NCBI GenBank assembly: GCA_023228865.1
Contig: JALOAH010000100.1
Span: forward strand, 1-12,863
DNA length: 12,863 bases
Source: Porticoccaceae bacterium
GTDB taxonomy: Bacteria; Pseudomonadota; Gammaproteobacteria; Pseudomonadales; Porticoccaceae
Reading direction: 5' to 3'
The notes below the pieces were generated by a model. The model saw nothing but the letters and a program-made list of their open reading frames with translations. It was not told the DNA's origin and searched no databases. The translations under genes and the position numbers were made by a program. Every line of letters begins with the position of its first letter. The first letter of the stretch is position 1. Shown here piece after piece: positions 1-12,392 of this stretch.

Positions 1-28
1 TGCCGATTCAGGCATTGAAAGATGAGAT

Positions 29-676
29 TTAGGTAACAGTCTCTGGCATTCCGATAATCTTTCCAAAAGGTACCATTTTCCTTTTATAGTCCACGTAGAG
101 GTGGGAGACATAGCATTGATTGCGATTCTTCGACTCTAGGAACAAAAGCACTTTCCATATCCACTGTAACACCGTGCGGGCGTCTTTCGGCCCAACGTTT
201 GCCGGGTTGGTATTCAATCCGAGTCTTTTGGTCTTGCCCGTGGCAGCATCTACATTTTCCGCATATTTCCTGTCCCCTGAGCTGCGTCGATTTGACGAAC
301 GAAGCGACATGTCGCCATTTGAGTTGCGATCAATCGAAACTTCCCAGAGGTGGTTGTGCATCAAGATATCTCTAATTACGAAGAGTTCTTTTGCTTCAGC
401 CAGATAAGGAAAATCCTGATACAGATCATTCAAATACGAAGGGACGGGTTTCGAGTCCAAGTCTTTTCCAGTAGCGTTGTTCATATAGCGAACTCGCATG
501 GTATAAGACTCAAGTGATGCCACGGCGAGAATTATTATAGATATGGCATAGGCATTTTCATAATACCCAGCTTTTATGGTTGGCTGATCTCCCTTGTCAT
601 GTTTCTCTAGCTTTTCTAATAGTGTTGCGATTGGGTCAAAAAAGGAACCCCCAATAATAGATACGAACTCATTCAT
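29..676 (-). CDS. HEPN-motif protein, putative RNase
   Basis: About 215 aa, mostly helical at both ends. Near residues 103-108 it reads RDILMH, an R-polar-x3-H arrangement matching the RNase motif (Rx4-6H) of HEPN-fold proteins. An earlier helix around residues 50-65 (LAVASLESYTMRV) resembles the first HEPN helix. HEPN proteins usually cut RNA in toxin-antitoxin, abortive-infection and other defence systems; that role here is inference from one short motif. The ATG at 676 was chosen; a GTG at 679 is directly adjacent. The nearest Shine-Dalgarno-like AAGGA lies about 13 nt upstream, so initiation looks weak. The gene follows the XRE regulator on the same strand after a 47-bp gap, so they may be co-transcribed. 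Its DNA is visibly AT-richer than the packaging and replication genes, suggesting separate acquisition. It could also be a non-catalytic HEPN or an unrelated helical protein. Confidence 0.6.
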   Translation of the reverse strand: MNEFVSIIGGSFFDPIATLLEKLEKHDKGDQPTIKAGYYENAYAISIIILAVASLESYTMRVRYMNNATGKDLDSKPVPSYLNDLYQDFPYLAEAKELFVIRDILMHNHLWEVSIDRNSNGDMSLRSSNRRSSGDRKYAENVDAATGKTKRLGLNTNPANVGPKDARTVLQWIWKVLLFLESKNRNQCYVSHLYVDYKRKMVPFGKIIGMPETVT

Positions 677-726
677 CACTTAACATAATTCCTTGTTGGC
701 GCCATTTATGACTGGCTAAAAGGTGA

Positions 727-963
727 TTATGAGTGGCAATCTTTGAGCATGTCTACCAGCTTGTGGGGATCAAGCCCAATCACGGTGCAAAGCTCCAGAG
801 TCTCCACGAAGTCAATCCGGCGTTCTCCGCTTTCGACCTTGGCAACATACGATTGGGGTTTGTTCAGCAACGCAGCAACATCCACCTGGCGTAGATTCGC
901 ACGAAGTCTCGCCGCCTTCAGTTCTTCTCGCAGCAAGTTGTGTTTGTCGCTGTTTTGGTACAT
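727..963 (-). CDS. XRE-family HTH regulator, controller-protein-like
   Basis: 78 aa. A Cro/C1-type helix-turn-helix covers about residues 10-70, with LRQVDVAALLNKPQSYVAKV forming the turn and recognition helix and a typical ESGERR ending. Size and layout match restriction-modification controller (C) proteins and small XRE repressors. The frame is open upstream to 1101, but that would run through the palindrome at 991-1007 and into the divergent gene, and the conserved domain begins just after the ATG at 963, so this start is preferred. The ribosome site is poor. It faces a GIY-YIG nuclease gene across an 87-bp divergent promoter region and precedes the HEPN gene. The likely role is to repress, or time, expression of both flanking genes through the palindrome (inference). 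Confidence 0.85.
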   Translation of the reverse strand: MYQNSDKHNLLREELKAARLRANLRQVDVAALLNKPQSYVAKVESGERRIDFVETLELCTVIGLDPHKLVDMLKDCHS

Positions 964-990
964 CGAGGAATGATGTACTATGCCCCTCAA

Positions 991-1007
991 TATCCCATTT
1001 TGGGATA
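991..1007. promoter_or_regulatory. Palindromic operator between XRE regulator and GIY-YIG gene
   Basis: TATCCCATTTTGGGATA is a perfect 7-bp inverted repeat with a 3-bp centre, midway between two divergent starts (963 on -, 1051 on +). A -10-like GATAAT at 1004-1009 for the + strand gene overlaps its right half, and no good -35 is visible. Position and symmetry suit a dimeric HTH regulator, presumably the adjacent XRE protein; the binding itself is inference. Confidence 0.65.
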
Positions 1008-1050
1008 ATTTGTCGAAAGCGAACGGAGCAGCAGAGGAGCAATAAGGGGA

Positions 1051-1851
1051 ATGGACTTGTTCGATATTCTCCGCGTGAACCCCACGGAAACAAAGGTCCA
1101 TCTGGCGGGATGGAATGGGGAGGAGGACCCGTTAGATGTCTATTTTGCTGGGGACTTCCAAGTGTGGCAGGAACACCAGACCAGGCGCAACTTTCAGCGC
1201 CGGTATGTCCTCAGTCTCATCAGGTATCCGGGGAACAACCTTTGGTTGTTTGTGGGGCTATACGAAGTCAAGGGCATCGTGGGAGCAGACGAAAATGGTT
1301 ATCACTTCTACGATACCGAATTGTCATCCATTGGGCTGGACCTAAAAGGGCGTCTCATCGTCCAGCATGCTCGCAAGGGCAGAAACTCCTACCCCTATGG
1401 GGAGAATGTTCAAGGGGCAGCCCGTGTCTACGAGGTCAAGCCCGAACCGTTGGCGTTTGCCGATTTCACAAGCTACAAGGATGTACAGCTTACGCGCCCG
1501 AAGCTGGAATTGCTGTTCAAGCACTCATACCCCTCGTGGAAAGCTGCGCTGTCGTCGGTGGCTGGCGTCTACCTCATTACCGATTCGGTCAACGGCAAAA
1601 TGTATGTTGGTAGCGCCTACGGGGAGGGGGGTATATGGAACCGTTGGGCGGAGTATGTCAATACCTATCATGGCGCCAACAGGGACTTCCTAAAGCTGTA
1701 TGGGGAAGCGGGACCCGAAGGGTTCCACCAATTCGAGTATTCGATTCTGGAAACCACGGATATAGAGGCATCACCGGATCAAGTTGTCGCATTGGAAAGT
1801 CGATGGAAGGACAGGCTGCTTACGCGAAAATTTGGGTATAACTCGAATTAA
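1051..1851 (+). CDS. GIY-YIG nuclease-family protein, putative restriction/defence endonuclease
   Basis: 266 aa with a C-terminal GIY-YIG nuclease domain from about residue 168 to the end. The GIY half is GVY at 172-174 and the YIG half is MYVG at 184-187. A helix Arg sits at 198 in WNRWAEY, the probable metal-binding Glu is 249 in ALESRWKDR, and the conserved terminal Asn is in GYN at 262-264. All expected catalytic positions are present, so the protein is probably active. The N-terminal ~165 residues (rich in W, Y and F, e.g. WNGEEDPLDVYF) form a domain I do not recognise by function; it may recognise DNA. The GGGGA next to the ATG and GAGGAG just upstream could bind ribosomes. No methyltransferase gene is nearby, so a modification-dependent or non-classical nuclease is more likely than a standard R-M enzyme. 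Divergent from an XRE regulator and close to a HEPN gene, it looks like defence cargo (inference). Confidence 0.85.
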   Translation: MDLFDILRVNPTETKVHLAGWNGEEDPLDVYFAGDFQVWQEHQTRRNFQRRYVLSLIRYPGNNLWLFVGLYEVKGIVGADENGYHFYDTELSSIGLDLKGRLIVQHARKGRNSYPYGENVQGAARVYEVKPEPLAFADFTSYKDVQLTRPKLELLFKHSYPSWKAALSSVAGVYLITDSVNGKMYVGSAYGEGGIWNRWAEYVNTYHGANRDFLKLYGEAGPEGFHQFEYSILETTDIEASPDQVVALESRWKDRLLTRKFGYNSN

Positions 1852-1862
1852 CCGAAGGTAGA

Positions 1863-1943
1863 GAAGCCACCCCGCCCCATCGTCAGCAGTCGACACGATC
1901 CCCGGCCAACCAAACGGGGATTATATCAAGACGGGGTGGCTTC
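1863..1943. repeat. Long nested inverted repeat at convergent gene junction
   Basis: GAAGCCACCCCG (1863-1874) and its exact reverse complement CGGGGTGGCTTC (1932-1943) enclose 57 bp. Inside, ATCCCC (1898-1903) and GGGGAT (1916-1921) form a second stem. It lies 11 bp after the GIY-YIG stop and before the convergent 256-aa gene. No T tract follows either strand, so it is not a classical terminator. It may act as a bidirectional transcription block or mark a module boundary. Confidence 0.6.
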
Positions 1944-1952
1944 ATGCGGTAA

Positions 1953-1970
1953 AGCTACCGGCGGGTAGCT
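1953..1970 (-). terminator. Short stem-loop overlapping stop codon of the 256-aa gene
   Basis: AGCTACC (1953-1959) pairs with GGTAGCT (1964-1970) with a 4-nt loop. Read on the - strand, it begins at the stop codon of the upstream gene and is followed by only TTTACC. A weak terminator at best. Confidence 0.35.
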
Positions 1971-2740
1971 CAAACTTGGTGGGCGGCCTCCTCGATACCT
2001 TCCTCCGCCTCGGCAACCGCCTTGCGGGCCAGTGCATTCGAGAGGTTGGACAGCGGATCGGCGAGGCCCCGGACAAATTCCCGGTTGGCGTTAATGGCAG
2101 TCTGGAAGGCGACCTGCACGCCTTTTAGCTTGGTGTTTACCCGCTGCCATACCGGCCCAACAACACGTTCCGCGAACTCGGCAGCGGGGAAGGGGCGGCG
2201 GTCCCGGGGGCGGCGGTCGATCACGGTGCAGATGGCGGCGGCCAGCACCGTATCGTTGCCCATAATTGCTTGGCGGGCGGCGGCTTCCAGCTCCTTGGGT
2301 CCGGCACCGTCGAGCTGCATCTGGTACTGGGTGCGCTTTGCATCGCCCAAGGCAGTACGGCCCAGCAGCATTACCGGACTCTCACACAGCGACTGGATGG
2401 CGGCGGCTTCGTCGGCGTAGGCTTTCAGGGTCCGTAGCATCTCCGTCCGTTCGTTCTCGCTGCTCTCAACCAGCTTGTGGCGCATATTCCGTACCCGCTG
2501 GGCTTCCTGCTGCTTGGCGAAGTCCTTGGCGGCGGCTCGGTTGTCGGGGTTGGTATCCCGGACAAGTTCGCTGCTCTCATGGGCAAATTTCTGCCGGGCC
2601 TCGTGGTATGTGGCTTGCAGCTTCTCGATCTTGCGGGCGAAGGCTTTTACTGTTTCTGCGGCGCGGTCGCTCAGTTGCTGGACGCGATCCTCAGAATAGG
2701 GGATGTTAGAAGGGACAGAATCGAAGTTAATTGTTGGCAT
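1970..2740 (-). CDS. SOS-controlled helical protein of unknown function
   Basis: 256 aa, not recognised. It is Ala/Glu/Arg-rich and strongly helical: residues ~15-115 look like a coiled coil (charged heptad-like runs such as DRAAETVKAFARKIEKL), and the C-terminal ~40 residues are again amphipathic helix. There is no signal peptide or membrane segment. The start is well supported by AGAGGAGG 5 nt before the ATG. It is the last - strand gene of the packaging cluster, but it has its own 142-bp upstream region holding a LexA box, so DNA damage should induce it separately. Possible roles are scaffold or assembly-interfering protein, antirepressor, or packaging accessory. None can be chosen from sequence alone. 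Confidence 0.8.
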   Translation of the reverse strand: MPTINFDSVPSNIPYSEDRVQQLSDRAAETVKAFARKIEKLQATYHEARQKFAHESSELVRDTNPDNRAAAKDFAKQQEAQRVRNMRHKLVESSENERTEMLRTLKAYADEAAAIQSLCESPVMLLGRTALGDAKRTQYQMQLDGAGPKELEAAARQAIMGNDTVLAAAICTVIDRRPRDRRPFPAAEFAERVVGPVWQRVNTKLKGVQVAFQTAINANREFVRGLADPLSNLSNALARKAVAEAEEGIEEAAHQV

Positions 2741-2808
2741 GGCGGCCTCCTCTGTTATTTAACCCGGGAAGCCCTTGTGGTGCGTGGTGGGGCTATTCCC
2801 AATCCGTA

Positions 2809-2828
2809 TACTGTACGAATATACAGTT
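2809..2828 (-). promoter_or_regulatory. LexA (SOS) box upstream of the 256-aa gene
   Basis: TACTGTACGAATATACAGTT contains CTGT-N8-ACAG exactly (2811-2826), the LexA operator of Enterobacteria, Pseudomonas and relatives, with near-consensus flanks. It lies about 70-90 bp upstream of the ATG at 2740, in a gap with no other gene, and overlaps -10-like TATA sequences on the - strand. Damage-activated RecA would remove LexA and switch the gene on, which is the usual cue for prophage induction. Binding is inferred from the match. Confidence 0.8.
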
Positions 2829-2882
2829 AAGGTAAGGATAAACCCCGGCCACAGAGGGAGTAAAGGAGGAAAAGTTGTCGGT

Positions 2883-3140
2883 TTAAGGGGTGTTTCGCCA
2901 TCCGCGTTGCCGGATATAGGCTTCCCTCGATTCAGCGTCCGGGAACGTCAATTCCCTCACTGGCTCGATACCTTGCCGGTCCTCCTCGTCCAATAAATAG
3001 TATGTTGCGGATTCGTTAACAATCAGTAGAAACTGGCCATCCTCCTCACAGGTATAAACGGCTCCGCCCTCGAAACCACCGATCAAAGTCATGTTTTCGC
3101 CGTTTTCCATTCTTTCCGCTCGTTTCTTGGTTTTGGTCAT
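2883..3140 (-). CDS. Hypothetical protein, 85 aa
   Basis: Not recognised. It is an acidic small protein with a basic N-terminus (MTKTKKRAERMENGE), then a probable beta-rich middle (GGAVYTCEEDGQFLLIV, ESATYYLL) and a short helical tail. It begins 1 bp after the TerL stop codon, so it is very likely co-transcribed and translationally coupled. An internal ATG at 3110, preceded by GGAAAGA, is a credible alternative start that would remove the basic leader. The tight spacing suggests a packaging-related or regulatory role, but nothing in the sequence defines it. Confidence 0.7.
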   Translation of the reverse strand: MTKTKKRAERMENGENMTLIGGFEGGAVYTCEEDGQFLLIVNESATYYLLDEEDRQGIEPVRELTFPDAESREAYIRQRGWRNTP

Positions 3141-3141
3141 C

Positions 3142-4536
3142 CTACACCCAAATCACCCGCTCCTCCCGGGGTGGTTCCGCAGTGCTGCCAAAGTGCGACA
3201 TTCGCGCTCCCGGGCGCTGGCCAGCGATCAGGTAGCTGGTGGCGTCCAGCATGTGGTCGTTAGCGGCAGAATCCACATCCTCCGGGTTGCGGCTGTCTCG
3301 GGGTAGGGTCGGGACCGTCGCCAGCCAGTAGCGGCAGCGGGAGGCCACATAGAAGTCACCGTTCACCATCAGCTCCTTCAGGTACTCGAAGCGGGGCACC
3401 CGCGCACCCTTCCGGGCGGGACTTACCCGCACCCCGGCGGCACGGAACATCTCCGAGATGCTGGCTTCCAGCTTTCCGGCGGTCTTGGCTTCGGCGGCGG
3501 CGTCGATCAGCCCACGGCAGCGGGTCTCGTTGCGGCGGGCAAGGGCATGGAGCGCCGGGGCGATCTGTCCCGGCGTCTTGGCTGTGCCCCTCGCCATGTT
3601 GCGGGGGTCGCACTCGAAGTGCTCGTCATGGATGCACCATGCCCCCTTGGGCAACACCCGGTCATCCCTCAGCCGGACATCGTGGGCCAGCTTCCCGCCC
3701 AACACAGTGGCGCATGGGGCGGCGCTGCCCCAGTCAATCGACAACTTCAGGTTGCTAAACAGGTGCGGCGGTATCTCGTGGTGGTCATAGACCATCTTGT
3801 CCATGGTCCAGATACCGGCGAAGTAATCGCCAACAATGGCGGACCAGTCGCCAAAGCGGTGGGCCTTATACAGCGCCGGGTCCGTGTGCTGCAATACAGA
3901 AAAATTGCGTTTATAGGCTTCCGGCAGGTGGGGGTTGTCGTCCACGGTCGAAGGGGCATAGACCCACTGCTGGTCGGCAAACTCGAAGGGTGCCCAAGGA
4001 ACACGGCCAGTCACGTAGCGGTCTGCTATAGCAGAGTGGTTGGCCCCGCCGGGGTTGCCCGCCAACACCATCCGCAGCGGCACACCCGGGGCGCGAAGGG
4101 TCAAGGCCAGGTTGTCGATCACCGGCAGGTCTGGGCCTTCCCCGGCCTCGTCAACAACGATCAACGAGAAGGTCATGCCCTGCACGGTGTCCTGCAAGGC
4201 GCTGGCGGACTCGCAATGGGTCAGGGCGATAGTTGCCCCATTGGGAAGCCGGAACACATTGTCGTTCTGGTTATAGCCCACATTGGCGCCGTAGGCAGAG
4301 CGCAGCAGCCCGCGCATCTCCTCAGCAAACTGGAGCAGGGACTTTAACCGGCGGCGCGTTACCAACACCCGGGCTTTACTCCGGTACTGGTTGCAGTGGC
4401 GAAGGACCAACAACTGGATCGCAAAGGACTTGCCGCCACCACGGCCCCCGCCCAGAAACAGGAAGTGGTCCTCCGGCACCGACAACACCGATGCTTGGAA
4501 GGGGGTAGGGCGGATTGCATCAATCTTGGCGGACAT
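3142..4536 (-). CDS. terL: Phage terminase large subunit (TerL)
   Basis: 464 aa, a usual TerL length. TerL is the ATP-driven DNA-packaging motor and headful or cos nuclease. The N-terminal ATPase shows an adenine-binding PTPFQ near residue 12, a Walker A GGGRGGGKS near 30-38, Walker B LIVVDE near 126-131 and a coupling motif LAGNPGG near 159-165. The C-terminal RNase H-like nuclease starts with LSIDWGSA near 267, has an acidic LIDAAAE near 345 and ends with NDHMLDATSYL near 427, giving the expected acidic metal-binding residues. Both halves look intact. The ATG at 4536 is preferred to the TTG just before it because GAGGG sits about 6 nt upstream. It overlaps the TerS-like gene by 17 bp. Instead of portal and capsid genes, an 85-aa unknown protein follows, which is unusual for a complete phage. 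Confidence 0.93.
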   Translation of the reverse strand: MSAKIDAIRPTPFQASVLSVPEDHFLFLGGGRGGGKSFAIQLLVLRHCNQYRSKARVLVTRRRLKSLLQFAEEMRGLLRSAYGANVGYNQNDNVFRLPNGATIALTHCESASALQDTVQGMTFSLIVVDEAGEGPDLPVIDNLALTLRAPGVPLRMVLAGNPGGANHSAIADRYVTGRVPWAPFEFADQQWVYAPSTVDDNPHLPEAYKRNFSVLQHTDPALYKAHRFGDWSAIVGDYFAGIWTMDKMVYDHHEIPPHLFSNLKLSIDWGSAAPCATVLGGKLAHDVRLRDDRVLPKGAWCIHDEHFECDPRNMARGTAKTPGQIAPALHALARRNETRCRGLIDAAAEAKTAGKLEASISEMFRAAGVRVSPARKGARVPRFEYLKELMVNGDFYVASRCRYWLATVPTLPRDSRNPEDVDSAANDHMLDATSYLIAGQRPGARMSHFGSTAEPPREERVIWV

Positions 4537-4945
4537 CAATTACCCTCGCATAGTCATCAGGGGACAGGGCGGCGTTAATCTGGATCAGCACCCGGGGGGC
4601 ATCGTCGCTGTTGCCGTCGCCTTTGTTAATCTTGTAAATGCGGTCGGCCAGCCATTCCGCTGCCCGCTCCGAACCTTCGTTTTTCATCTTGTCTTTCATA
4701 AACGACACAATCTCACCGGCACCCTCGGCACGGCCTTCTTCGAGGGCAAGTGCCAGTGGCGATAATTCACCCTCTTCTGTGTCCTCCTTCAATACTCGCC
4801 ACTGTGCTGGGGTAAGGCCCAGGGCACGGCGGATGGTGTGTTCCCGGCAGCCCTCCTGTGCCAGCTCGCGGGCAACGTCAAGGTTGCGATCATCGAGCGC
4901 CGGGAGGTTGTCAGGCTTCGGTGTCAGTTGTTTCTTGTCGGGCAC
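4520..4945 (-). CDS. Terminase small subunit-like protein (TerS)
   Basis: 141 aa from the GTG at 4945. This start is chosen over the in-frame ATG at 4996 because GGAGGAGG lies 6-7 nt upstream, and the longer version would be buried in the recombinase gene. A helix-turn-helix-like segment covers about residues 24-53 (VARELAQEGCREHTIRRALG followed by LTPAQWRVL), where small terminases bind the packaging site. A helical middle (~60-105) could be the oligomerisation region. It overlaps the end of the recombinase by 35 bp and the start of TerL by 17 bp. The TerS assignment rests on position, size and the N-terminal HTH; sequence similarity to a named TerS family is not evident by eye. Confidence 0.7.
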   Translation of the reverse strand: MPDKKQLTPKPDNLPALDDRNLDVARELAQEGCREHTIRRALGLTPAQWRVLKEDTEEGELSPLALALEEGRAEGAGEIVSFMKDKMKNEGSERAAEWLADRIYKINKGDGNSDDAPRVLIQINAALSPDDYARVIDVRQD

Positions 4946-5543
4946 GTTTCGCCTCCTCCAACTCTGTTTTAATGCGGTAAGCCGTCGAATAGCCAACGCG
5001 GGTGGTGCGGGTTATCCGTGTTATGGGAATGCCGCCCTCAAGCATGGCCGTTATGCGGTGCTCTACCGCCGGGGGTATCTTCGGCCTGCCCAGCTTCTTT
5101 CCCTTGGCCCGGGCACGTTCTAAGCCCAGCAAGGTGCGCTCCCGGATCATCTCCCGCTCGAATTCCGCGAAGGACCCCATCACGTTAAACATCAACTGGC
5201 CCATCGGGGTCGAGGTATCGAGCGCCATGTTGTGGATAAACAATCCCGCCTTCAGGGCTTCTAACTCCGCCACCATGGCGATCAGGTGCGGCAGGCTCCG
5301 GCCCAGCCGGTCAAGTGCGGTGGCCGCCACCATATCGACTTCCCCCAGCGTGGCGGCGGTCAGCATGGCATCGAGTCCGGGGCGTTTATCCCTGCCTTTC
5401 TTGCCGCTAATGCCCTCATCGACAAATTCCCCGGCGATGGTGTGGCCCCGGCCCTGCGCCCAAAGGCGAAGCGCCAGCAACTGGTTCTCAACGGTCTGGT
5501 CACGGTGGGTCGATACCCGGGCGTATAAAGCCACTCTTGTCAT
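4911..5543 (-). CDS. Serine recombinase, resolvase/invertase family
   Basis: 210 aa. The catalytic domain opens with VALYARVSTHRDQ, placing the nucleophile Ser11 with Arg9 beside it. Other family signatures are DEGISGKKGRDKRPGLDAML (42-61), the ALDRLGRS arginines (Arg79, Arg82) and GQLMFNVMGSFAEFERE (115-131), followed by the RTLLGLERARAKGKKLGRP linker. A C-terminal HTH at ~162-195 (ITRITRTTRVGYSTAYRIK) binds DNA. This is a complete Hin/Tn3-resolvase-type enzyme. The frame is open to 5705, but the conserved domain starts at the ATG at 5543, preceded by AGGGA. It heads the TerS-TerL operon and lies next to the origin, so it may resolve multimers, invert a segment or act as the first late-operon regulator. 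A 12-bp inverted repeat just upstream may be part of its site. Confidence 0.92.
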   Translation of the reverse strand: MTRVALYARVSTHRDQTVENQLLALRLWAQGRGHTIAGEFVDEGISGKKGRDKRPGLDAMLTAATLGEVDMVAATALDRLGRSLPHLIAMVAELEALKAGLFIHNMALDTSTPMGQLMFNVMGSFAEFEREMIRERTLLGLERARAKGKKLGRPKIPPAVEHRITAMLEGGIPITRITRTTRVGYSTAYRIKTELEEAKRARQETTDTEA

Positions 5544-5589
5544 GGTTCTAATCCCTAAACGTATATACAAACGATATGCATTTATCTTA

Positions 5590-5686
5590 CTCCGAAAACG
5601 TACGACTATCGAGGGAAAATCTATAACAAACAAGAGGTTGGAATATATGGCCTTCCGGCGGTGGCATTTCCGAGACGTTTTCGGAG
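5590..5686. repeat. 12-bp inverted repeat pair upstream of serine recombinase
   Basis: CTCCGAAAACGT (5590-5601) and ACGTTTTCGGAG (5675-5686) are perfect reverse complements separated by 73 bp. They sit 47-143 bp upstream of the recombinase start and next to the origin repeats. They could be recombinase binding subsites or an operator pair. No further symmetry extends the arms. Confidence 0.5.
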
Positions 5687-5742
5687 GGGGTGGTTTTGGC
5701 CACACAGGGGCGGGGCGGGAGGTCTATGGCCCAAGGGGAATG

Positions 5743-6045
5743 GTCAGTGACGGGTAGCAGTTTTCATCGACTCAGTACGGTCAGTATGGAGTCAGTATTC
5801 TTAACTATATGAATTTATTATATTTTATTATAAATATACTAACTATACTGGGTATACTGACCTAAAGAGTCTAGGAGATATTCTCACTGCTCCCTATCGT
5901 CTGCTGGGCATATCACCGAATTTTCCTAGAGAAAAAATCGGGGCGGTATACTCAGTATGGTCAGTACATTTTCACCGGAGGCCACGGCCCGCATGGATTT
6001 CGTTCGTACTGACCTGATTCCCGGGTCAGTATATTCGGTACTGAC
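5743..6045. other. Candidate replication origin with iterons and AT-rich tract
   Basis: Octamers of the form (G/C)TCAGTA(C/T) occur at 5771, 5780, 5791, 5951, 5960 and 6025. The opposite orientation occurs at 5854, 6006 and 6038. Weaker copies start at 5743, 5836 and 5845. Several are 9 bp apart. They flank an almost pure A+T run (about 5802-5840) suitable for unwinding. The cluster lies directly downstream of the primase-helicase gene, as the P4 ori/crr repeats lie near the alpha gene (family knowledge). Nothing else in this 580-bp gene-free stretch (5544-6123) looks coding. Origin function is inferred. Confidence 0.7.
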
Positions 6046-6082
6046 CTCAGCACCCCCACTCCGAACATCAGCCCACCAATCA

Positions 6083-6111
6083 GAAAAAAACGGCGAGCAT
6101 GGCCCGCCGTT
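6083..6111 (-). terminator. Intrinsic terminator of the primase operon
   Basis: On the - strand, AACGGCG pairs with CGCCGTT (arms 6105-6111 and 6089-6095, 9-nt loop) and is followed by a run of Ts (the A run at 6084-6090). It begins 12 nt after the primase-helicase stop codon and would insulate the origin from the early operon. Confidence 0.8.
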
Positions 6112-6123
6112 GAGTAGGGTTAT

Positions 6124-8526
6124 CTACCATCGTGCAGGAGGCTTGTAGTAATCCTCCGGGACTGGTGGCCATTTCACTGGGAACATTTCCTTGGACCATG
6201 CTGCGCGCAGTCTTGAGAGGTCCCACAGATAACCATTTGCACCGCCAGATTTTCGATGTTTTGTGGCGGCATCCAATTTCTCGATAAGCACCTTCCGGAT
6301 ACCGGAGTGGGTAATGTGATTCCAGCCGGGTCGCCCCTGCATCCAACTTTTTGCGTCTTTTAGTAGCTCAGAGGTAGGTACAAACATTCCCCCTGATCTC
6401 AGCTCTTCAGCTCCCGGGGGCGGCTCTGCGGACTTTAGCAGGTCGAACAGGTAAGCCTCGAATCCCTGAAGGCTTTGAGCCTTCTGGTCGATCAACGCTT
6501 CAGTCTGAGGTACTGCGCGAACCTCGAAGTCATCAAGGTCATACGTGAGTAGAAAATACAGAAGGTTCTCAAACCCGCCGGATTCCAGATCATTCCTGAT
6601 GGCCTTGAAATAGCGGTGATTCTGCTTTTCACCATCGCCGATTTCAAGAACAAAGAATCGACGTTCATCCAGACCAGCAGGAACTACCCAGCTGTCATTT
6701 GAAGCAAGTATGAGGTGCGTGAAGTTGGCGGCGGCTTCGGCGTCCACCCCCTTGCCTTCGACAATTAAGCTCTCTTCAGTGATGAGTGTCTTGAGCACCG
6801 ATTCATGCTTCTTGTCTCCGGCGAAGAATGCTTCATCACCGAACAGTAGGACCGTGTCCCGGAGGTGGGCGTTGAAAGAGCCCACCAAATGCTTGGAATC
6901 CGACACCTGAAGGAAGTGACGTCCAAAGAGGTGCCCCAATACTTTGGCAAAGAACGATTTGCCTGTGCCGCGTTTCCCTCGCAGTACAACGGCAACTTCT
7001 CCCGGGCTGTCAGGCTCCTGAACAGCACGGGCCATCCAGCCTACAAGATACTCATACCATTCCTCATTGCCAGAACAGACATTATCTTTCACATGGCGCA
7101 GGAAGGATTCATGATTGTTGCCGGGGCTTGAGTCGCAGGCGAAGCCTTGCCAAAGATTATAGGCATCCTCAACCTCCTGACCGGGAGCAAATACCATGGT
7201 CTCAAACTGACGGCGGAGGGGATGGTCAATCCACCACGCCCCGACCGCCTTTTCAATTGGCTGTCCGCTGTCACCGACACCCACCACCACCTTGCGGTTG
7301 CGGTAGAAGTTGCGGAAGTCCTCGAAGGACTGTTTTGTGATGCGTACCCGCTTGTCTTTGCGGCTTCGATCCTCAGTCTCTGTGATGATCCGGCATTTCC
7401 CACCTATATTACCTATCACGGCATACTTCTCGTTGAGTTTGCGCAGCCACGGGTCCACCGCCTCCTCGTGCGCCCGTTCGATCTGGCGCAGGGCGTAGGA
7501 TTCCCAGTTGGGCTTATCCCGGACTGAGGCGGCGATCTCGTTGGACCCGGTGATGATCGCATAAATCATCTCATCCGGGACCTCCGCCCTGACCAGGTCG
7601 CAACAGACCTTGAACAGGGTTTCGGACCGGGAAGGGTACTTGTTGGGGTCAATCGGGTCCGCCCCGGTCGCAATCAGGGCAAGGCAGTGGTCACTGATGG
7701 ATTTGCCGTTCTCTGACGCCCACTCCCTCAACTCCTCGGAACCGATGTCAGGGATGTTGCCCGTAACTCTGATTTTCGGTCGTGCGCCGGGAAGAGAGTC
7801 ATCTTTGCTCTGCACCCTGACAGCGGCGGCGAACTTCGACAGGGGGTACACGCGGTCATCGTGCCATTCCAGTAGGGTAGCCAGAACCGGGACCCGGCCC
7901 TTGCGCAGCTTCTTCTTGTTGGGCACGTTGATCGTGCCCGGAAGGCGCATGATGCGATCCACGTTGTGGCAGTGGTCCCCCTGGAATATGATCTCCAGCT
8001 GCTGGTTGTACCGCTCCAGCTCCTCCGCCTTCGCCACAATCCCGTTGATTTCGAGGTCCGGGGACTCCTCCAGCTTCCAGAAGGCTTGAATACCCCCGCC
8101 GGAGTCGATGATGACCGTGGGCTGCTTGTCGAACTCCCGGAGGACCTTCAGCGCCCGTTCCCGCTCCTCCTCAATATCCTCCCCCGCCCGGGGGTCAATG
8201 TCCACGTGGAGCCAGTCCATGCGCAGGACATCTTCCTTGGTGGCCTTCGCCTCATACTTCTCCCCGTTCTGCCCATGCTTGTACGCGGGCTTGGTCGGGT
8301 TCACGTGGAAGTAAATGTTCAGCTTGCCCTGCTTTCCGTCGATCCATGCCCGGGCCTCCGCTTCCGTCTCCAGCGTGAAGCTCTGGGTGATGGTCTTGCC
8401 GTCCGGGATAATCGCGGTCAGGACCCAGGGACCGCCGGGGCGGAATCGTTGCAAAAATTCGATAGCCGCTGGCGTATCGGGGGTAAGGGGCAGTGCTGTT
8501 TCTGCTGCCCTAAGAGCTTCAGCCAT
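6124..8526 (-). CDS. Replicative primase-helicase (AEP-like primase plus SF3 helicase)
   Basis: 800 aa, similar in architecture to the P4 alpha protein and other satellite and phage replication enzymes. The N-terminal primase region has metal-binding DID at 109-111 (WLHVDIDPR), the active-site DSGGGIQAFWKL at 141-152 and RIMRLPGTINVPNKKK at 191-206, a signature of RepB/AEP-type primases. The C-terminal third is a superfamily 3 helicase: Walker A GKRGTGKS (517-524), Walker B VLLFGDE (559-565), motif C LILASND (605-611) and an arginine finger in DERRFF (620-625). All key residues are present. The ATG at 8526 has AAAGGGG upstream and overlaps the stop of the preceding gene by 8 nt, so translation is coupled. 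It should start replication at the adjacent repeat cluster and makes the excised element a self-initiating replicon (inference). Confidence 0.93.
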   Translation of the reverse strand: MAEALRAAETALPLTPDTPAAIEFLQRFRPGGPWVLTAIIPDGKTITQSFTLETEAEARAWIDGKQGKLNIYFHVNPTKPAYKHGQNGEKYEAKATKEDVLRMDWLHVDIDPRAGEDIEEERERALKVLREFDKQPTVIIDSGGGIQAFWKLEESPDLEINGIVAKAEELERYNQQLEIIFQGDHCHNVDRIMRLPGTINVPNKKKLRKGRVPVLATLLEWHDDRVYPLSKFAAAVRVQSKDDSLPGARPKIRVTGNIPDIGSEELREWASENGKSISDHCLALIATGADPIDPNKYPSRSETLFKVCCDLVRAEVPDEMIYAIITGSNEIAASVRDKPNWESYALRQIERAHEEAVDPWLRKLNEKYAVIGNIGGKCRIITETEDRSRKDKRVRITKQSFEDFRNFYRNRKVVVGVGDSGQPIEKAVGAWWIDHPLRRQFETMVFAPGQEVEDAYNLWQGFACDSSPGNNHESFLRHVKDNVCSGNEEWYEYLVGWMARAVQEPDSPGEVAVVLRGKRGTGKSFFAKVLGHLFGRHFLQVSDSKHLVGSFNAHLRDTVLLFGDEAFFAGDKKHESVLKTLITEESLIVEGKGVDAEAAANFTHLILASNDSWVVPAGLDERRFFVLEIGDGEKQNHRYFKAIRNDLESGGFENLLYFLLTYDLDDFEVRAVPQTEALIDQKAQSLQGFEAYLFDLLKSAEPPPGAEELRSGGMFVPTSELLKDAKSWMQGRPGWNHITHSGIRKVLIEKLDAATKHRKSGGANGYLWDLSRLRAAWSKEMFPVKWPPVPEDYYKPPARW

Positions 8527-8938
8527 AACGCACCCCTTTCAGCAGGTGGTTCCAGCGGCTCCATGCGCCCCGGCGGACTCCGTGATAGTTGTAGAATATC
8601 CCACGGCCAAAATATCCGTTATCTCGAATGTCGGGATACAGGCGGACCAGTTTGTTGCCAACAAGGTGTTCTCTGCCTCGCATTACCTCCCTGCAATATT
8701 CGAGAGTCCGCAGATCATCAGCCAGATCAGCGGAATCGTTGGCGGCTCCGGTGCAGACTTTCAGTAGCCCATCCACGATGTCCCTCACGCAGGCCACGAG
8801 GTGGGCATTGCCCTCGTTGGTATAGTCGATCCACAGTGGGAAAATCTCCGACGGGGGAATGCCCAACAGCAAGGCCACATAGGCGGCTTCCTGCCAGTCG
8901 GATTCGCGGGTGGTGGGGGGAAAAGGTATATATTCCAT
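8519..8938 (-). CDS. Hypothetical protein of the replication operon, 139 aa
   Basis: Not recognised. It is a soluble, mixed-composition protein with an N-terminal helix (DWQEAAYVALLLGIPPSEIF), a central helix-rich part, and an aromatic and basic C-terminus (GYFGRGIFYNYHGVRRGAWS). It starts 4 nt after the AlpA-like stop codon behind AGGGGGG and overlaps the primase-helicase start by 8 nt, so the three genes form one tightly coupled unit. That position suggests a replication accessory protein, regulator or copy-number factor; there is no direct evidence for any of these. Confidence 0.8.
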   Translation of the reverse strand: MEYIPFPPTTRESDWQEAAYVALLLGIPPSEIFPLWIDYTNEGNAHLVACVRDIVDGLLKVCTGAANDSADLADDLRTLEYCREVMRGREHLVGNKLVRLYPDIRDNGYFGRGIFYNYHGVRRGAWSRWNHLLKGVRYG

Positions 8939-8941
8939 GTG

Positions 8942-9196
8942 TCAGCCCCCCTTTTCCTGCTCGGCGGCCAAGAACGCATCAATATCGTTCAGGTCCCATG
9001 CGGTGGTACGGGGTCCCAGCTTTTTTGGCTGGGGGAAGCCGGGGCGCTCCTTGGCCCAGCGCCAGCACGTCGCCAAACTCACCCCCAGATACTGGGCGGT
9101 GGCGTTGGGGCGGGAGTAGCGGGGTTGCTGGCGGCGTGCCAGTTCGTCAGCGACAGCCTGTTTCAAGGCAGAGAGTGGGATTGTTTCTTGGTTCAT
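8942..9196 (-). CDS. alpA: AlpA-family HTH transcriptional regulator
   Basis: 84 aa. A winged/MerR-like HTH occupies ~27-75: YSRPNATAQYLGVSLATCWR followed by WAKERPGFPQPKKLGPRTTAW and DLNDIDAFLA, which closely follows the AlpA pattern (FPxPxKLGxR..W...DIDAFL). AlpA proteins activate integrase or excision genes in P4-like satellites and PICIs, and some act as the induction switch (family knowledge). The ATG at 9196 is preferred over the in-frame upstream ATG at 9241, which lies at the base of a terminator-like hairpin. AGGA about 10 nt upstream is the likely ribosome site. It leads the replication operon, behind a structured leader. Confidence 0.85.
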   Translation of the reverse strand: MNQETIPLSALKQAVADELARRQQPRYSRPNATAQYLGVSLATCWRWAKERPGFPQPKKLGPRTTAWDLNDIDAFLAAEQEKGG

Positions 9197-9232
9197 AACA
9201 ACGAGTCCTATCACTAAGGCTCGCGCTACCCG

Positions 9233-9302
9233 TAAAAACAAACACGAGGCAGCGCAAGAGAGCCGCCCTTTGTTGGGCGGACCGCTTGCTAACTACCTCG
9301 TG
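9233..9302 (-). terminator. Nested terminator hairpin in alpA leader: attenuator or int terminator
   Basis: Read on the - strand, three stacked stems form: CACGAGG/CCTCGTG (arms 9296-9302 and 9243-9249), GCAAG/CTTGC (9285-9289 and 9254-9258) and CCGCCC/GGGCGG (9275-9280 and 9263-9268, 6-nt loop). TTTGTTTTT follows. This is a convincing intrinsic terminator, 37 nt upstream of the alpA ATG. It could end the int transcript or conditionally block the replication operon. Confidence 0.7.
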
Positions 9303-9387
9303 CTTTCTCCCGAGGGACCAATCTGGTGCCGTCCACCCCAGGATTGGGTACCTGGCGGCCAACGGTTCAGCTAGACAATTGGGTAAG

Positions 9388-9415
9388 ATACTATCGTCTA
9401 ATTACGGGGCGGTAA
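9388..9415 (-). promoter_or_regulatory. Possible sigma70 promoter for alpA-primase operon
   Basis: On the - strand TTACCG (9410-9415), a 16-bp spacer, then TAGTAT (9388-9393). It lies between the int stop and alpA and would give a leader of about 185 nt containing the nested hairpin. The match is moderate. CTAGAC/GTCTAA half-sites flank the -10 region. Confidence 0.35.
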
Positions 9416-9458
9416 AGCTCTTTTAGTAAATTATTTTTTGGTAACTCCATGTATTAGT

Positions 9459-10811
9459 TTACTTTTTAGGAAAACAGAACCCTGCCCAGTCCGCCATAAG
9501 TGCCCGTCGCTTCTCGAAAAGATCACCCCGCCGGTATGCCGCCTCCACCTTGCTTTCGATGGTGTGGGCCAAGGCCATTTCGGCCACTTCTCGTGGGTGG
9601 TTGGTGTGCTCTGCCGCCCAATCGCGGAAGGTCGAGCGGAAGCCATGGGGAGTCACCAGCTTGTCCCGCTTCGGGTCCAGGTAGCCGGGCTGGCCGCTGC
9701 TGGTGTTGGCCTCGTGCATCCGCATTATTACCGCCTTCAATGTGGCGTCGGACAGCTCGCCAGCCCTGGGTGCCGGAAACAGCATCCCGGTTCGGGGCTG
9801 GGGCAACCCGTCCAGCAGCTCAATGGCCAGCGGGGAGAGTGCCACCCGGTGCTCCTTGCCCGCCTTCATCCGCTCCGCCGGTACGGTCCAGACGCCATGG
9901 GCCAGGTCGATCTCCTCCCAGGTCGCGGCCCGCACTTCGCCGGATCGTGCCGCCGTCAGGATGGCGAAGGCTAGGGCTTTCGCCCCGGCGGAATCCTGTT
10001 GCCGCAAGTGGGCGAAGAACCGCGCCATATCTTCCACCGGCAGGGCGGGGAGGTGTTCGGTTCTGCTGGCCTTGCCCTTCTTGGGTAGCAGGTGGTCGAG
10101 GTGCCCCCGCCATCGGGCTGGGTTCTCTGCGGTCCGGTATTTGCGGGCAATGGCGAAGTCAAACACGTTTTCGATATGGCCCTGCAAGCGGACAGCAGTG
10201 GCCCCCTTCGCCTTCCAGAATTCCTCCTTGTTGGTGTTCTCGTTCTTCTGGCGCAGGACGTTCAGGACGTGGGCCGTGTCGATCTCCTCGATATGCAGCT
10301 TGCCCAGCAAGGGGTAAGCATAGGTCTCAAAGGCATTGCTCCACCGGGGGAAGTCCTTGGGGTTCTTCCACTCCTCGGCCTTCACCGCAAGGTACTGGGT
10401 CGCCACCTCCCGGAAGGTAATGGCCCTGGCCATCTCTGCCAGCATGGCGGCTTTTGCCCGCCTGCGCTCCGCCAGCGGGTCGATGCCTTGGTTGATCTTC
10501 TCCCGCAAGGTCCTGGCCGCTGTCCGTGCCTGTTCCAGCGACACCGTGGGATAGTCGCCCAAACCAATCTCCCGGCGGACATAGTTGCGCCACAGGTCCT
10601 TCTTGTCGGTATATTTTGGTTCGGTGTCGGGCTTCTCGATGCTATAGCGCAACAGCCAGGATTTTCCGCTGGTCTCTTGGGCGGTCGGGGCCACCTGTAC
10701 ATATAGCCCACTCACTCCGCCCACCGCATAGCAGATGGGCCGGTCCTTGTCCGGGTCCCCTTTCAGTTTCCGCACATAGAGGTCCGTTTTCTTCTTTGCT
10801 ACCCTTGGCAT
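9459..10811 (-). CDS. int: P4-type tyrosine integrase
   Basis: 450 aa, the normal length for P4-like site-specific integrases, which recombine the element with a tRNA 3' end. The N-terminal ~110 residues are the DUF4102-type arm-binding domain (GLYVQVAP, IGLGDYPTVSLEQARTAA). A SAM-like core-binding domain spans ~130-235. The catalytic domain carries Arg289 (TAARSGEVR), a lysine around 316-319 (MKAGKEHR), His389 and Arg392 (TPHGFRSTFRDW), His416 (LAHTIE) and nucleophile Tyr426 (VEAAYRRGDLF). All are intact. The only ribosome-site candidate is a weak GATAGAAG just before the ATG at 10811. Two 9-bp repeats lie 10-29 bp upstream of the start, so the protein may repress its own gene. The gene is transcribed away from the right attachment site. 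Confidence 0.96.
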   Translation of the reverse strand: MPRVAKKKTDLYVRKLKGDPDKDRPICYAVGGVSGLYVQVAPTAQETSGKSWLLRYSIEKPDTEPKYTDKKDLWRNYVRREIGLGDYPTVSLEQARTAARTLREKINQGIDPLAERRRAKAAMLAEMARAITFREVATQYLAVKAEEWKNPKDFPRWSNAFETYAYPLLGKLHIEEIDTAHVLNVLRQKNENTNKEEFWKAKGATAVRLQGHIENVFDFAIARKYRTAENPARWRGHLDHLLPKKGKASRTEHLPALPVEDMARFFAHLRQQDSAGAKALAFAILTAARSGEVRAATWEEIDLAHGVWTVPAERMKAGKEHRVALSPLAIELLDGLPQPRTGMLFPAPRAGELSDATLKAVIMRMHEANTSSGQPGYLDPKRDKLVTPHGFRSTFRDWAAEHTNHPREVAEMALAHTIESKVEAAYRRGDLFEKRRALMADWAGFCFPKK

Positions 10812-10820
10812 GTCTTCTAT

Positions 10821-10840
10821 CCGCCTATAACCCGCCTATA
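10821..10840. repeat. Tandem CCGCCTATA repeats before int start
   Basis: CCGCCTATA occurs at 10821-10829 and 10832-10840, 11 bp apart, about one helical turn, directly upstream of the int ATG. They are candidate integrase arm sites or an operator for int autoregulation. Confidence 0.5.
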
Positions 10841-10863
10841 GATTGGGCTATCTTACGCGATCC

Positions 10864-10956
10864 TATAAGACGAAGAAAGAGGGAAAAAATTATCAATATG
10901 CTGTTATATAAGGATAAAAAGTAAAGTAGAGAGATAAGGCGAGATGGTATAAGACG
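10864..10956. repeat. Direct TATAAGACG repeats near right attachment site
   Basis: TATAAGACG occurs at 10864-10872 and 10948-10956, 84 bp apart, between int and the tRNA-like core. They are possible arm-type sites for integrase or its excision partner. The 9-bp length makes chance possible but unlikely in 130 bp. Confidence 0.35.
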
Positions 10957-10969
10957 CTAAAGCGGCGGT

Positions 10970-10983
10970 CTCCCTCACCGCCA
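10970..10983 (+). other. Right attachment site: tRNA-Ser 3'-end fragment
   Basis: CTCCCTCACCGCCA contains CCTCACC-G-CCA, the 3' acceptor strand, discriminator and CCA of gammaproteobacterial tRNA-Ser genes whose 5' end is GGTGAGG. No tRNA body precedes it, and an intrinsic terminator follows 8 nt later as for a native tRNA. P4-type integrases commonly target such ends, so this is read as the duplicated core at the element border. The fragment also forms half of a GGCGGT/ACCGCC hairpin (10964-10982), an alternative explanation. Confidence 0.55.
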
Positions 10984-11292: not shown

Positions 11293-11320
11293 AGCCGCCT
11301 CTCCCACCTTGCTTGCTTAA

Positions 11321-11344
11321 GCCAGGCGCGTGCCTGCGCCTGGC
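11321..11344. other. Strong GC-rich stem-loop before Rnk-like gene
   Basis: GCCAGGCGC (11321-11329) and GCGCCTGGC (11336-11344) form a perfect 9-bp stem with a 6-nt loop. No immediate T tract follows on the + strand; TTTTTA appears about 10 nt later. It could be a weak terminator or part of the leader of the gene starting at 11418. Confidence 0.5.
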
Positions 11345-11417
11345 GACATCTCGTTTTTATCCATTCCTATCATTCTCCGAGAGGGTCATCTTGGCGCTTC
11401 AGCGTTTGAGGATTTTC

Positions 11418-11792
11418 ATGAGTCGCTATATGGAAAAGGTCGAGAAGTATTGCATGACCAACCGGATAAGCCTCGCCCTTGGTCCGGTTGAACTTGGACA
11501 TGTGCTTGGCAAGCTCGAAGGGCTGGACTCGCTTCCCGATGACAGTGTGGAAAAGCGGTACAGGGCCCATGTTGGTAAATCAGTGGAACTTCTCGACCTC
11601 TACGATGGCAGTCGCGTAGTGTTTGATTTGGTATTGCCCGGAGAGGATGACGCTACAGCGGGTCGATTGTCGGTATTGTCCCCCCTGGGGGCCGCAGTGC
11701 TTGGTTTGACGGCGGGCGAGCGGGCCCAGGTTTCATTATTTGGCAGCCAGCATGTGTATCTGGTGTGTCGGGTTTTCAGCACCAATTCCTAG
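11418..11792 (+). CDS. Rnk/GreA-C-terminal-domain protein, nucleoside diphosphate kinase regulator-like
   Basis: 124 aa. The C-terminal half (about 52-120) is the FKBP-like GreA/GreB C-terminal domain with its hallmark LSVLSPLGAAVLGLTAGE at 84-101. The N-terminus is a short helical segment (LGKLEGLDSLPDD) rather than a GreA coiled coil, as in Rnk. Such proteins bind RNA polymerase near the secondary channel and compete with Gre factors; E. coli Rnk affects nucleoside diphosphate kinase levels (family knowledge). The ATG at 11418 is chosen for its GAGG 6 nt upstream; the frame extends to 11313, but that part has no conserved sequence. Chromosomal gene outside the element. It could be a Rnk paralogue rather than the true orthologue. 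Confidence 0.82.
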   Translation: MSRYMEKVEKYCMTNRISLALGPVELGHVLGKLEGLDSLPDDSVEKRYRAHVGKSVELLDLYDGSRVVFDLVLPGEDDATAGRLSVLSPLGAAVLGLTAGERAQVSLFGSQHVYLVCRVFSTNS

Positions 11793-12025: not shown

Positions 12026-12392
12026 CTTTTTGGGGTGCAGGGATGCGCCCGCACATTCTGATAAATAAGCGTTTATGCGTCATGGCGAGGTGGATCTATT
12101 TTTTACCAGCTCAATGCACTTTCGGTGGTCAAGAATATTTCCCCGTGCGTAGGTGTGGGTGTTGAGATTTGATCTGAGAGTCGCCGGCTTGACATGGCCT
12201 TTTTCAATTCGTGAATTTTTTCTGGCAGATTATTTTTCCGCAAATCAATGTTTGCAGGATTGGGGGCGACGCATCGCCTGTATTTGAAATGCCACCAAAC
12301 ATTCACAATAACTTCCCGAAATGTACATAGACCGTCCTGATAATTTCTCCTGATTGCTCACACCCATTCCTACATCCGATCAGGAGACTCCC
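12026..12392. other. Gene-poor intergenic stretch upstream of TonB-dependent receptor
   Basis: No convincing gene. A 67-codon - strand frame (12103-12306, GTG start, GGAAG upstream) has no recognisable sequence and is not called. The last ~90 bp before 12393 should hold the receptor promoter and leader, but no clear Fur box or -35/-10 pair stands out. Confidence 0.4.

What the first reader, a model, noticed from the sequence alone, without database searches (positions are those of the whole stretch)
1..10983. Satellite-like element with its own TerS-TerL but no visible virion genes
The element has integrase, AlpA, primase-helicase, origin, serine recombinase, TerS-like and TerL, yet after TerL come an 85-aa unknown, an SOS gene and nuclease cargo instead of portal, protease and capsid. 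P4 relies on its helper's terminase and classical PICIs generally carry only TerS, while capsid-forming PICIs carry terminase with capsid genes. A terminase pair without structural genes would be an intermediate design that could package its own DNA into a helper's procapsids.
Basis: partly seen in the sequence, partly recalled or inferred. Interest (0 to 1): 0.75.

Follow-up and report, generated by a model that had tools for sequence, protein, structure and literature searches.

The report
Phage satellite with own packaging motor
A small mobile element that hitch-hikes on bacterial viruses carries its own complete DNA-packaging motor but no shell to pack into, and relatives with the same design sit in many unrelated bacteria, which suggests a type of virus parasite that brings its own loader and borrows the box.

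Summary
The window carries an integrated element (Int, AlpA, primase, serine recombinase, TerS, TerL, then p85, p256 and cargo) with no head or tail gene in the part visible; its left end is not held. In 25 related loci SerRec-TerS-TerL is present in 25, and p256 in all 23 that run past TerL. Fourteen are bounded by repeats at tRNA genes (9.5-12.8 kb). Among 100 non-core ORFs of 24 elements the only virion-like gene recognised is a head-tail adaptor in 2 elements. TerL keeps its motor and nuclease residues, folds like known terminases and is under purifying selection. Copies from two proteobacterial classes are 97.9% identical over 6.9 kb, so the family moves. Likeliest reading: a satellite that loads its DNA with its own terminase into a helper's procapsids. 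Yuavirus-type siphophages are candidate helpers: the window's primase is 71% identical to theirs, and relatives share two small genes with them. Sister elements suggest a series: TerS+p256; TerS+TerL+p256; TerL with capsid gene. Packaging, helper and p256's role are inferred, not shown.

The parts
10970..10983 (.). att-like copy of a tRNA-Ser 3' end (int-proximal end of the element)
   Evidence: reads CTCCCTCACCGCCA, like the tRNA-Ser 3' ends of family members; no tRNA gene in the window
9459..10811 (-). tyrosine integrase
   Evidence: Phage_int_M 1.4e-22, Arm-DNA-bind_3 2.8e-16, Phage_integrase 1.8e-13; 38-55% identity to Int of 15 of 25 relatives
8942..9241 (-). AlpA-like regulator (my gene caller put the start at 9196)
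   Evidence: PF05930 1.7e-4, 21.8 bits against a cut-off of 21; similarity in 18 of 25 relatives
8519..8938 (-). p139, unknown, between AlpA and primase
   Evidence: similar ORFs at the same place in part of the relatives
6124..8526 (-). primase-helicase (DUF5906), 71% identical to yuavirus primase
5590..5686 (.). res-like inverted repeat CTCCGAAAACGT ... ACGTTTTCGGAG, arms 5590-5601 and 5675-5686
   Evidence: TCCGAAAACGT occurs twice in the window, 0.14 expected at up to one mismatch; similar arms upstream of SerRec in L001 and L005
4911..5534 (-). serine recombinase of resolvase/invertase type
   Evidence: Resolvase 4e-43; present in 25 of 25 relatives
4520..4945 (-). terminase small subunit (TerS)
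   Evidence: profile alignment to a phrog_309-type TerS of the sister group; 25 of 25 relatives
3142..4539 (-). terminase large subunit (TerL)
   Evidence: Terminase_3/6N, phrog_2, fold match to D6E, HK97, Sf6 and T4 terminases; 25 of 25 relatives
2883..3140 (-). p85, unknown; sits where many relatives have the yuavirus-like p88 gene but shows no clear similarity to it
2811..2826 (+). LexA-box-like site upstream of p256
   Evidence: not conserved in the family
1970..2740 (-). p256, conserved all-helical protein, hallmark of the family
   Evidence: 23 of 23 relatives that run past TerL; AlphaFold2 pLDDT 86; no match in the phage or plasmid collections
1051..1851 (+). cargo: GIY-YIG nuclease-like protein
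   Evidence: PF01541 1.3e-4, phrog_26160 5e-54
727..1101 (-). cargo: HTH (XRE-type) regulator
   Evidence: HTH_31 3e-9
29..679 (-). cargo: 216-aa unknown
   Evidence: no family hit

Best explanation
An integrated phage satellite of a widespread, recently mobile family. Shown by sequence: Int/AlpA and tRNA att sites for insertion, a primase for replication, a resolvase-type recombinase with a res-like site, a complete and constrained TerS-TerL pair, and p256; no portal, capsid or tail gene recognised. Inferred mechanism: on infection by a helper phage the element excises and replicates. The serine recombinase probably resolves multimers. The element's own TerS picks its DNA, and its own TerL docks on the helper's portal and pumps that DNA into helper procapsids; tails and lysis come from the helper. 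p256 probably acts on the capsid side of assembly (for instance as a small-capsid scaffold): it sits where a sister group carries capsid genes, and it is kept in relatives without TerL. Siphophages related to Yuavirus (Mesyanzhinovviridae) are the best candidate helpers. My estimates by step: mobile satellite without head genes 0.9; own terminase packs own DNA into borrowed heads 0.7; yuavirus-like helper 0.45; p256 acts in capsid assembly 0.35.
For: Synteny in 25 loci. Both att repeats in 14 of 16 loci tested, 9,476-12,791 bp. Empty site in 1 of 61 Stenotrophomonas genomes, one alignment over 480 of 481 bases at 92%. Pfam scan of 100 non-core ORFs lists no head, portal or tail family by name. 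TerL motif residues invariant in 33 rows, fold matches to whole terminases, dN/dS 0.057-0.214 in 8 pairs. L018 (Gammaproteobacteria) against L020 (Betaproteobacteria): 97.9% over 6,909 bp, cargo largely different. Shared with yuavirus PAE1: primase in 20 of 20 called primase ORFs (31-74%), p88 in 13 of 24 elements, p83 in 7 of 24. p88 occurs in 61 of 50,697 phage records, by name 52 Pseudomonas, 8 Bordetella, 1 Sphaerotilus. Sister elements with capsid gene and with TerS plus p256 but no TerL found.
Against: No induction, packaging or helper data. The window's left end is unseen. The window itself lacks p88 and p83 and shares closely only the primase with yuaviruses; related primases are in 328 phage records. 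Clade-A TerL is 21-24% identical to PAE1 TerL in the three compared, and phage ctLpZ231 is closer at 29-30%. L011 carries a head-tail adaptor-like ORF (phrog_477, 1.2e-16) and L002 its homologue. An ORF after p256 in L037 weakly resembles PAE1 at its adaptor Ad1 (3.5e-4) but hits no PHROG. p256 shows no similarity to either scaffold tested and no informative fold match. L021 has no primase similar to the window's.
Confidence: 0.66

Rival explanations
1. Remnant of an ordinary prophage that lost its head and tail genes, with the terminase as a leftover.
For: The primase is close to that of 60-kb phages. Some copies do decay: L144 carries pieces of int, terL and p256 with a stop inside, and in L037 a TerL N-terminus is joined to p256 in one ORF.
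Against: The same reduced gene set in 25 loci, purifying selection on TerL, TerS and p256, cross-class near-identity, precise tRNA att sites. Random decay would not converge on one layout.
Confidence: 0.06
2. The terminase is used against the helper (cutting or mis-packaging helper DNA, or occupying its portal) and the satellite's own DNA is packed by the helper terminase.
For: Satellites commonly interfere with helpers (PMC11389934 passages); nuclease-domain residues are conserved; relatives with TerS and p256 but no TerL found would have to use a helper TerL.
Against: TerS is kept with TerL in 25 of 25 loci, as expected of a DNA-selection pair; the ATPase residues are constrained too.
Confidence: 0.15
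3. p256 or another unrecognised gene is a new head protein, so the element makes its own capsid like a cf-PICI.
For: p256 is in every locus that runs past TerL and has no homologue in the phage collection; sister group D carries a capsid gene near TerL.
Against: The p256 model is all-helical, unlike known tailed-phage capsid or portal proteins (fold reading from general knowledge); the gene clusters shared by nearly all elements are Int, AlpA, primase, SerRec, TerS, TerL and p256 only.
Confidence: 0.1
4. Satellite as described, but helpers are unrelated phages; shared yuavirus genes are only past recombination.
For: Phages of many groups share a related primase (328 records); the TerL is nearer to ctLpZ231 than to PAE1; the window has neither p88 nor p83; p83 is in 110 records of a wider set.
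Against: p88 was found only in 61 records of Pseudomonas, Bordetella and Sphaerotilus phages; several separate genes point to the same phage group; TerS of four no-TerL elements resembles PAE1 TerS weakly.
Confidence: 0.4

Closest known systems
PICI of Gram-negative bacteria
   Same: tRNA att sites, Int, AlpA, primase, TerS, about 10-12 kb, variable cargo (PICI traits partly recalled)
   Different: carries a TerL as well; prototypical PICIs bring TerS or Rpp and use the helper's TerL (PMC10690885 introduction passage)
capsid-forming PICI (cf-PICI)
   Same: own TerS and TerL
   Different: no capsid, protease or portal recognised; an adaptor-like ORF in 2 of 24 elements only; cf-PICI content as described in the PMC10690885 passage
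P4-like satellites
   Same: similar size, primase-helicase, helper-supplied head; p256 is about the size of the P4 Sid scaffold (recalled)
   Different: P4 uses the helper terminase (passage); no homology of p256 to Sid shown or tested
PICMI
   Same: Int, AlpA and DUF5906 primase core; satellites of virulent phages (PMC10803314 passages)
   Different: PICMI has no identifiable packaging genes and sits next to fis; this family has TerS-TerL-p256 and sits at tRNA genes
Mulch/Flayer satellites of Streptomyces
   Same: own terminase pair, virulent helpers (PMC10690885 passages)
   Different: those also encode portal, capsid and scaffold and no obvious replicase
AH14b of Pseudomonas sp. ANT_H14
   Same: AlpA, primase, no structural genes, found in helper capsids (PMC4936722 passages and abstract)
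   Different: no terminase was identified in AH14b by its authors

Membership tests
PICI | site-specific integration with Int and att repeats | tested here: met
   14 of 16 loci with 14-23 bp repeats in tRNA genes; empty site; the window shows the int-side copy only
PICI | AlpA-type regulator plus primase plus TerS | tested here: met
PICI | no own TerL; helper TerL used | tested here: not met
   TerL in the window and 25 of 25 loci
PICI | phage induction and transfer | not testable with these tools
   needs experiment
cf-PICI | TerS and TerL | tested here: met
cf-PICI | major capsid, protease, portal, connectors | tested here: not met
   none hit in the window nor by name in the Pfam scan of 100 non-core ORFs of 24 elements; a connector-like ORF in L011 and its homologue in L002; 63 short ORFs unscanned and 37 PHROG families unseen
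P4-like | P4 set of genes (sid, delta, psu, epsilon; recalled) | not tested
   no P4 sequence was compared
PICMI | insertion next to fis, no packaging genes | tested here: not met
   insertion at tRNA genes in 14 loci; TerS-TerL present
Mesyanzhinovviridae provirus | yuavirus structural genes | tested here: not met
   proteins of the 24 elements match PAE1 at terminase, primase, endonucleases and small ORFs, not at its portal, capsid or tail genes

The most novel reading that the evidence does not exclude
A satellite lineage built around a portable packaging motor: its own TerS-TerL docks on the portals of virulent, non-integrating yuavirus-type phages, while p256 reshapes the helper's capsid assembly. 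It is one step in a graded series (TerS+p256; TerS+TerL+p256; TerL with scaffold and capsid but no portal) that would show how head genes are gained or shed by satellites.
Probability: 0.3. Interest if true: 0.85.

Novelty: new variant of a known kind. Interest (0 to 1): 0.68.

Why it matters
The satellites described in the papers I saw either redirect the helper's motor or bring motor and head together (passages). A conserved family with the motor alone, moving between bacterial classes, suggests that a terminase can be a self-standing hijacking module and makes a direct question testable: how freely can a foreign TerL work on another phage's portal? The shared genes name a helper group to test, phages in which one study found no integrase and failed to get lysogens, while it also cites lysogeny reports for DLP4 and LK3 (PMC11946847 passages). 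My searches for a satellite of that group showed none in their listings.

Tried and rejected
p256 as homologue of a known scaffold: profile comparison with the sister group's coiled-coil protein (probability 0.13) and with the PAE1 scaffold (0.04) gave nothing. Fold searches of the p256 model gave no Foldseek hit at E<=0.001 in PDB or BFVD and helical bundles of many unrelated proteins in VIA-align; this excludes no family.

Sequence search of PDB with profiles: TerL hit Sf6 gp2 weakly (0.003); TerS a short stretch of a 'CAP REPEAT' chain (4e-9 over 32 residues, no stretch passing alone; taken as chance or a shared HTH, not followed); p256 nothing convincing.

Helper by co-residence: portal families in 20 host genomes: PF04860 5, PF05136 3 (2 over cut-off), PF05133 0, PF06074 3. 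About half the hosts have none of these four, and one of the five PF04860 hits is the ORF beside the element of L021, so co-residence is uninformative.

p256 as SOS gene: box not conserved. Window p85 as member of the p88 family: no clear similarity.

Paper searches for satellites with a terminase pair but no head genes; for yuavirus satellites: 98, 99. Listings only, apart from the passages cited; none found in that open-access library. The paper on thousands of satellites (10.1093/nar/gkad123, recalled DOI) is not held and was not read. In one further paper (PMC11680222, passages) satellites in S. maltophilia defence islands are only mentioned.

Counts and drops: fragments L044 and L060 (one contig) were left out. 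L003 and L023 (contigs ending inside TerL) were left out of the 24-element map; L023 comes from a MAG labelled Blastopirellula, perhaps mis-binned. Of 160 non-core ORFs listed, 97 were scanned (all 91 of 110 aa or more, 6 shorter) plus 3 short ORFs of the map; 63 were not. PHROGs showed 25 of 62 matched families. Tree 2 dropped 12 rows as near-copies or long branches and added 3 phages. My simple gene caller missed genes (for instance in L009), so presence counts rest on tblastn.
Full report
Observation. The window's minus strand encodes, from the integrase end leftwards, Int, AlpA, p139, primase-helicase, serine recombinase, TerS, TerL, p85 and p256, then cargo on both strands. Domain scans confirm Int and AlpA, the primase (phrog_1829, 3e-121), resolvase (4e-43) and TerL (Terminase_3 5.5e-11; phrog_2 7.9e-29) and hit no portal, capsid, protease or tail family. 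TerS has no direct hit, but its family profile aligns with probability 96 to a sister-group TerS that hits phrog_309. The int-side att copy ends like family tRNA-Ser 3' ends. The other end lies left of position 1 and no genome is held.

The family. A search of public proteins listed 120 TerL relatives of 230 found; about 70 of those are 60-93% identical. Genome and viral contigs gave 25 loci of the same clade, hosts including Pseudomonas, Halomonas, Stenotrophomonas, Acidithiobacillus, Thioalkalivibrio, Methylobacillus, Gulbenkiania and Plasticicumulans. TerL, TerS and SerRec are in 25 of 25; primase in 22 of 25; p256 in 23 of 25, the two others being contigs that stop inside TerL. In L002, L015, L024 and L043 TerL lies apart from TerS, beyond p256. 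Of 16 loci tested, 14 show repeats of 14-23 bp linking the int end to a tRNA gene (12 Ser, one Thr, one Gly), enclosing 9,476-12,791 bp; the other two are cut near the int end. For the S. maltophilia copy the joined flanks align over 480 of 481 bases at 92% in one of 61 Stenotrophomonas genomes, an empty site; most others match only the tRNA side.

Virion genes. I listed 160 non-core ORFs in 24 mapped elements. I scanned 97 of them (all 91 of 110 aa or more, 6 shorter) plus 3 short ORFs from the gene map; 63 short ones were not scanned. Pfam gave 21 families, all shown: methylases, PvuII- and BsuBI/PstI-type nucleases, NADAR, PRTase-CE, GIY-YIG, DnaT_2 and others, none with a virion name. PHROGs showed 25 of 62 families without a virion name. 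Against this, the DnaT_2 hit is an ORF next to the primase of L011, with a homologue in L002, that PHROGs names head-tail adaptor (phrog_477, 1.2e-16). So 2 of 24 elements carry one connector-like gene; in the window no scanned protein does. Seven cargo ORFs scanned singly gave methylases or unknowns.

Is the motor real? Walker and nuclease-domain residues are invariant in 33 TerLs (K37, D130, E131, D269, D346, D428, D432; roles assigned from general knowledge). The model (pLDDT 82, pTM 0.53) matches terminases of D6E, HK97, Sf6 and T4 across both domains, with whole-chain TM-scores of only about 0.4. dN/dS is 0.057-0.214 in 8 TerL pairs (two with dS above 1), 0.067-0.161 in 3 TerS pairs and 0.013-0.373 in 6 p256 pairs. 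L018 in a gammaproteobacterium and L020 in a betaproteobacterium are 97.9% identical over 6,909 bp from AlpA to p256; beyond p256 only short stretches match. These data speak against a decaying prophage.

Sister designs. More distant TerLs reveal other layouts. In sphingomonad loci L026-L028, L037 and L040 a TerL of 38-49% is accompanied by a p256 relative. Ten loci (L025, L031-L034, L042, L049, L051, L054, L055) have a capsid gene close to TerL: three were scanned (phrog_247, 2.6e-92 or better), the others match those at 62% or more; six of the ten also have a related coiled-coil, scaffold-like protein. Their TerS is assigned by position and size, with one weak match (L025). In L031 and L033, which have a tRNA-Ser at the far end, no further ORF of portal size is seen: the 420-aa ORF of L033 and its counterparts in L032 and L034 are helicase-like and the 682-aa ORF of L031 primase-like. 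A third type came from a p256-profile search: eight loci of the S. maltophilia family and two others (L166, L167) have a diverged p256. Seven share a phage-type TerS: phrog_4044 in the two scanned, weak similarity to PAE1 TerS in four. L166 and L167 match the window-type TerS. None gives a credible TerL match: the hits are the p256 part of L037's fused ORF and two weak ones inside primase. I saw p256 and the L031-type capsid gene together in no locus where both were sought and shown. In trees of 60 and 51 TerLs the window's clade is supported 100/100, and in the second tree six phage TerLs separate from the rest at 100/100. However, L062 and L064, from 87- and 70-kb viral contigs that may be phages, fall among the satellites, several rows are uncharacterised and roots are by midpoint, so the lineage is not proven exclusive to satellites.

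Candidate helper. The window's primase is 71% identical over 85% of its length to primases of Yuavirus-type phages. Thirteen of 24 elements carry an 86-101 aa protein 34-69% identical to PAE1 Orf68, and seven an 83-aa protein after p256 that is 53-59% identical to PAE1 Orf32; L024 and L043 share a third gene with Orf41 (46%). The first occurs in 61 of 50,697 phage records, all named after Pseudomonas, Bordetella or Sphaerotilus (the taxonomy line was read only for PAE1). The second is in 110 records of a wider set. In other phage stretches that I compared, shared genes were mainly the terminase; those stretches are shorter than PAE1, so this is no full control. The Lydia paper (passages, PMC11946847) reports no integrase in correctly classified members of this phage family and argues for a lytic life, but cites lysogeny reports for DLP4 and LK3. 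The window has neither small gene, and its TerL is nearer to phage ctLpZ231 than to PAE1. Gene sharing is shown; helper status is inferred.

p256. All-helical model, pLDDT 86, two long helices then a helical core; no match in the phage or plasmid collections and no informative fold match. Its universal presence, its place where sisters keep capsid genes, and its survival without TerL make a capsid-assembly role my first guess, at 0.35. Size similarity to P4 Sid is recalled, not tested.

Serine recombinase. Inverted repeats TCCGAAAACGT/ACGTTTTCGGA 73 nt apart lie just upstream in the window, with similar arms 76 nt apart in L001 and L005. This looks like a res site, so multimer resolution is likely; inference. 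LexA-like boxes lie upstream of SerRec in L001 and L005 and of p256 in the window and L043, too few to call a regulon.

How common. The p256 profile matched 4 of 398 genomes of the phylum (one is the S. maltophilia centre, one marginal) and 20 of 395 of its family (five already known, two marginal). The single window protein matched 1 of 398 genomes of the genus of L005's host, the known one.

Verdict. It is a new variant of phage satellite: TerS plus TerL without recognisable head genes, conserved, recently mobile, with a plausible helper group.

Noticed in passing
L021:2198-3963: Next to the S. maltophilia element, outside its int end, a 242-aa ORF with coiled-coil look precedes a PF04860 portal ORF (1.6e-13, partial); probably a second satellite or prophage remnant in tandem.
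   Followed up: partly
L037:9992-11275: One ORF reads as TerL N-terminus followed by the p256 C-terminus, apparently a deletion joining the two genes.
   Followed up: partly
L037:11244-11723: A 159-aa ORF after the fused gene resembles PAE1 at its head-tail adaptor position (3.5e-4) but hits no PHROG.
   Followed up: partly
L031, L033, L042, L034: Elements with TerL, a scaffold-like coiled coil and a phrog_247-type capsid; no portal-size gene seen in L031 and L033: a separate intermediate design.
   Followed up: partly
L159-L168: Elements with a TerS and a diverged p256 but no TerL found.
   Followed up: partly
L018 and L020, downstream of p256: Cargo is largely different while the core stays 98% identical; cargo in the family includes several type II restriction-modification genes.
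   Followed up: partly
L002:5090-5524 and L011:7937-8377: Head-tail adaptor-like ORF (Pfam name DnaT_2) beside the primase.
   Followed up: yes
window 11313-11792 and 12354-12863: Right flank looks chromosomal: a GreA/Rnk-like protein and the start of a TonB-dependent receptor.
   Followed up: no
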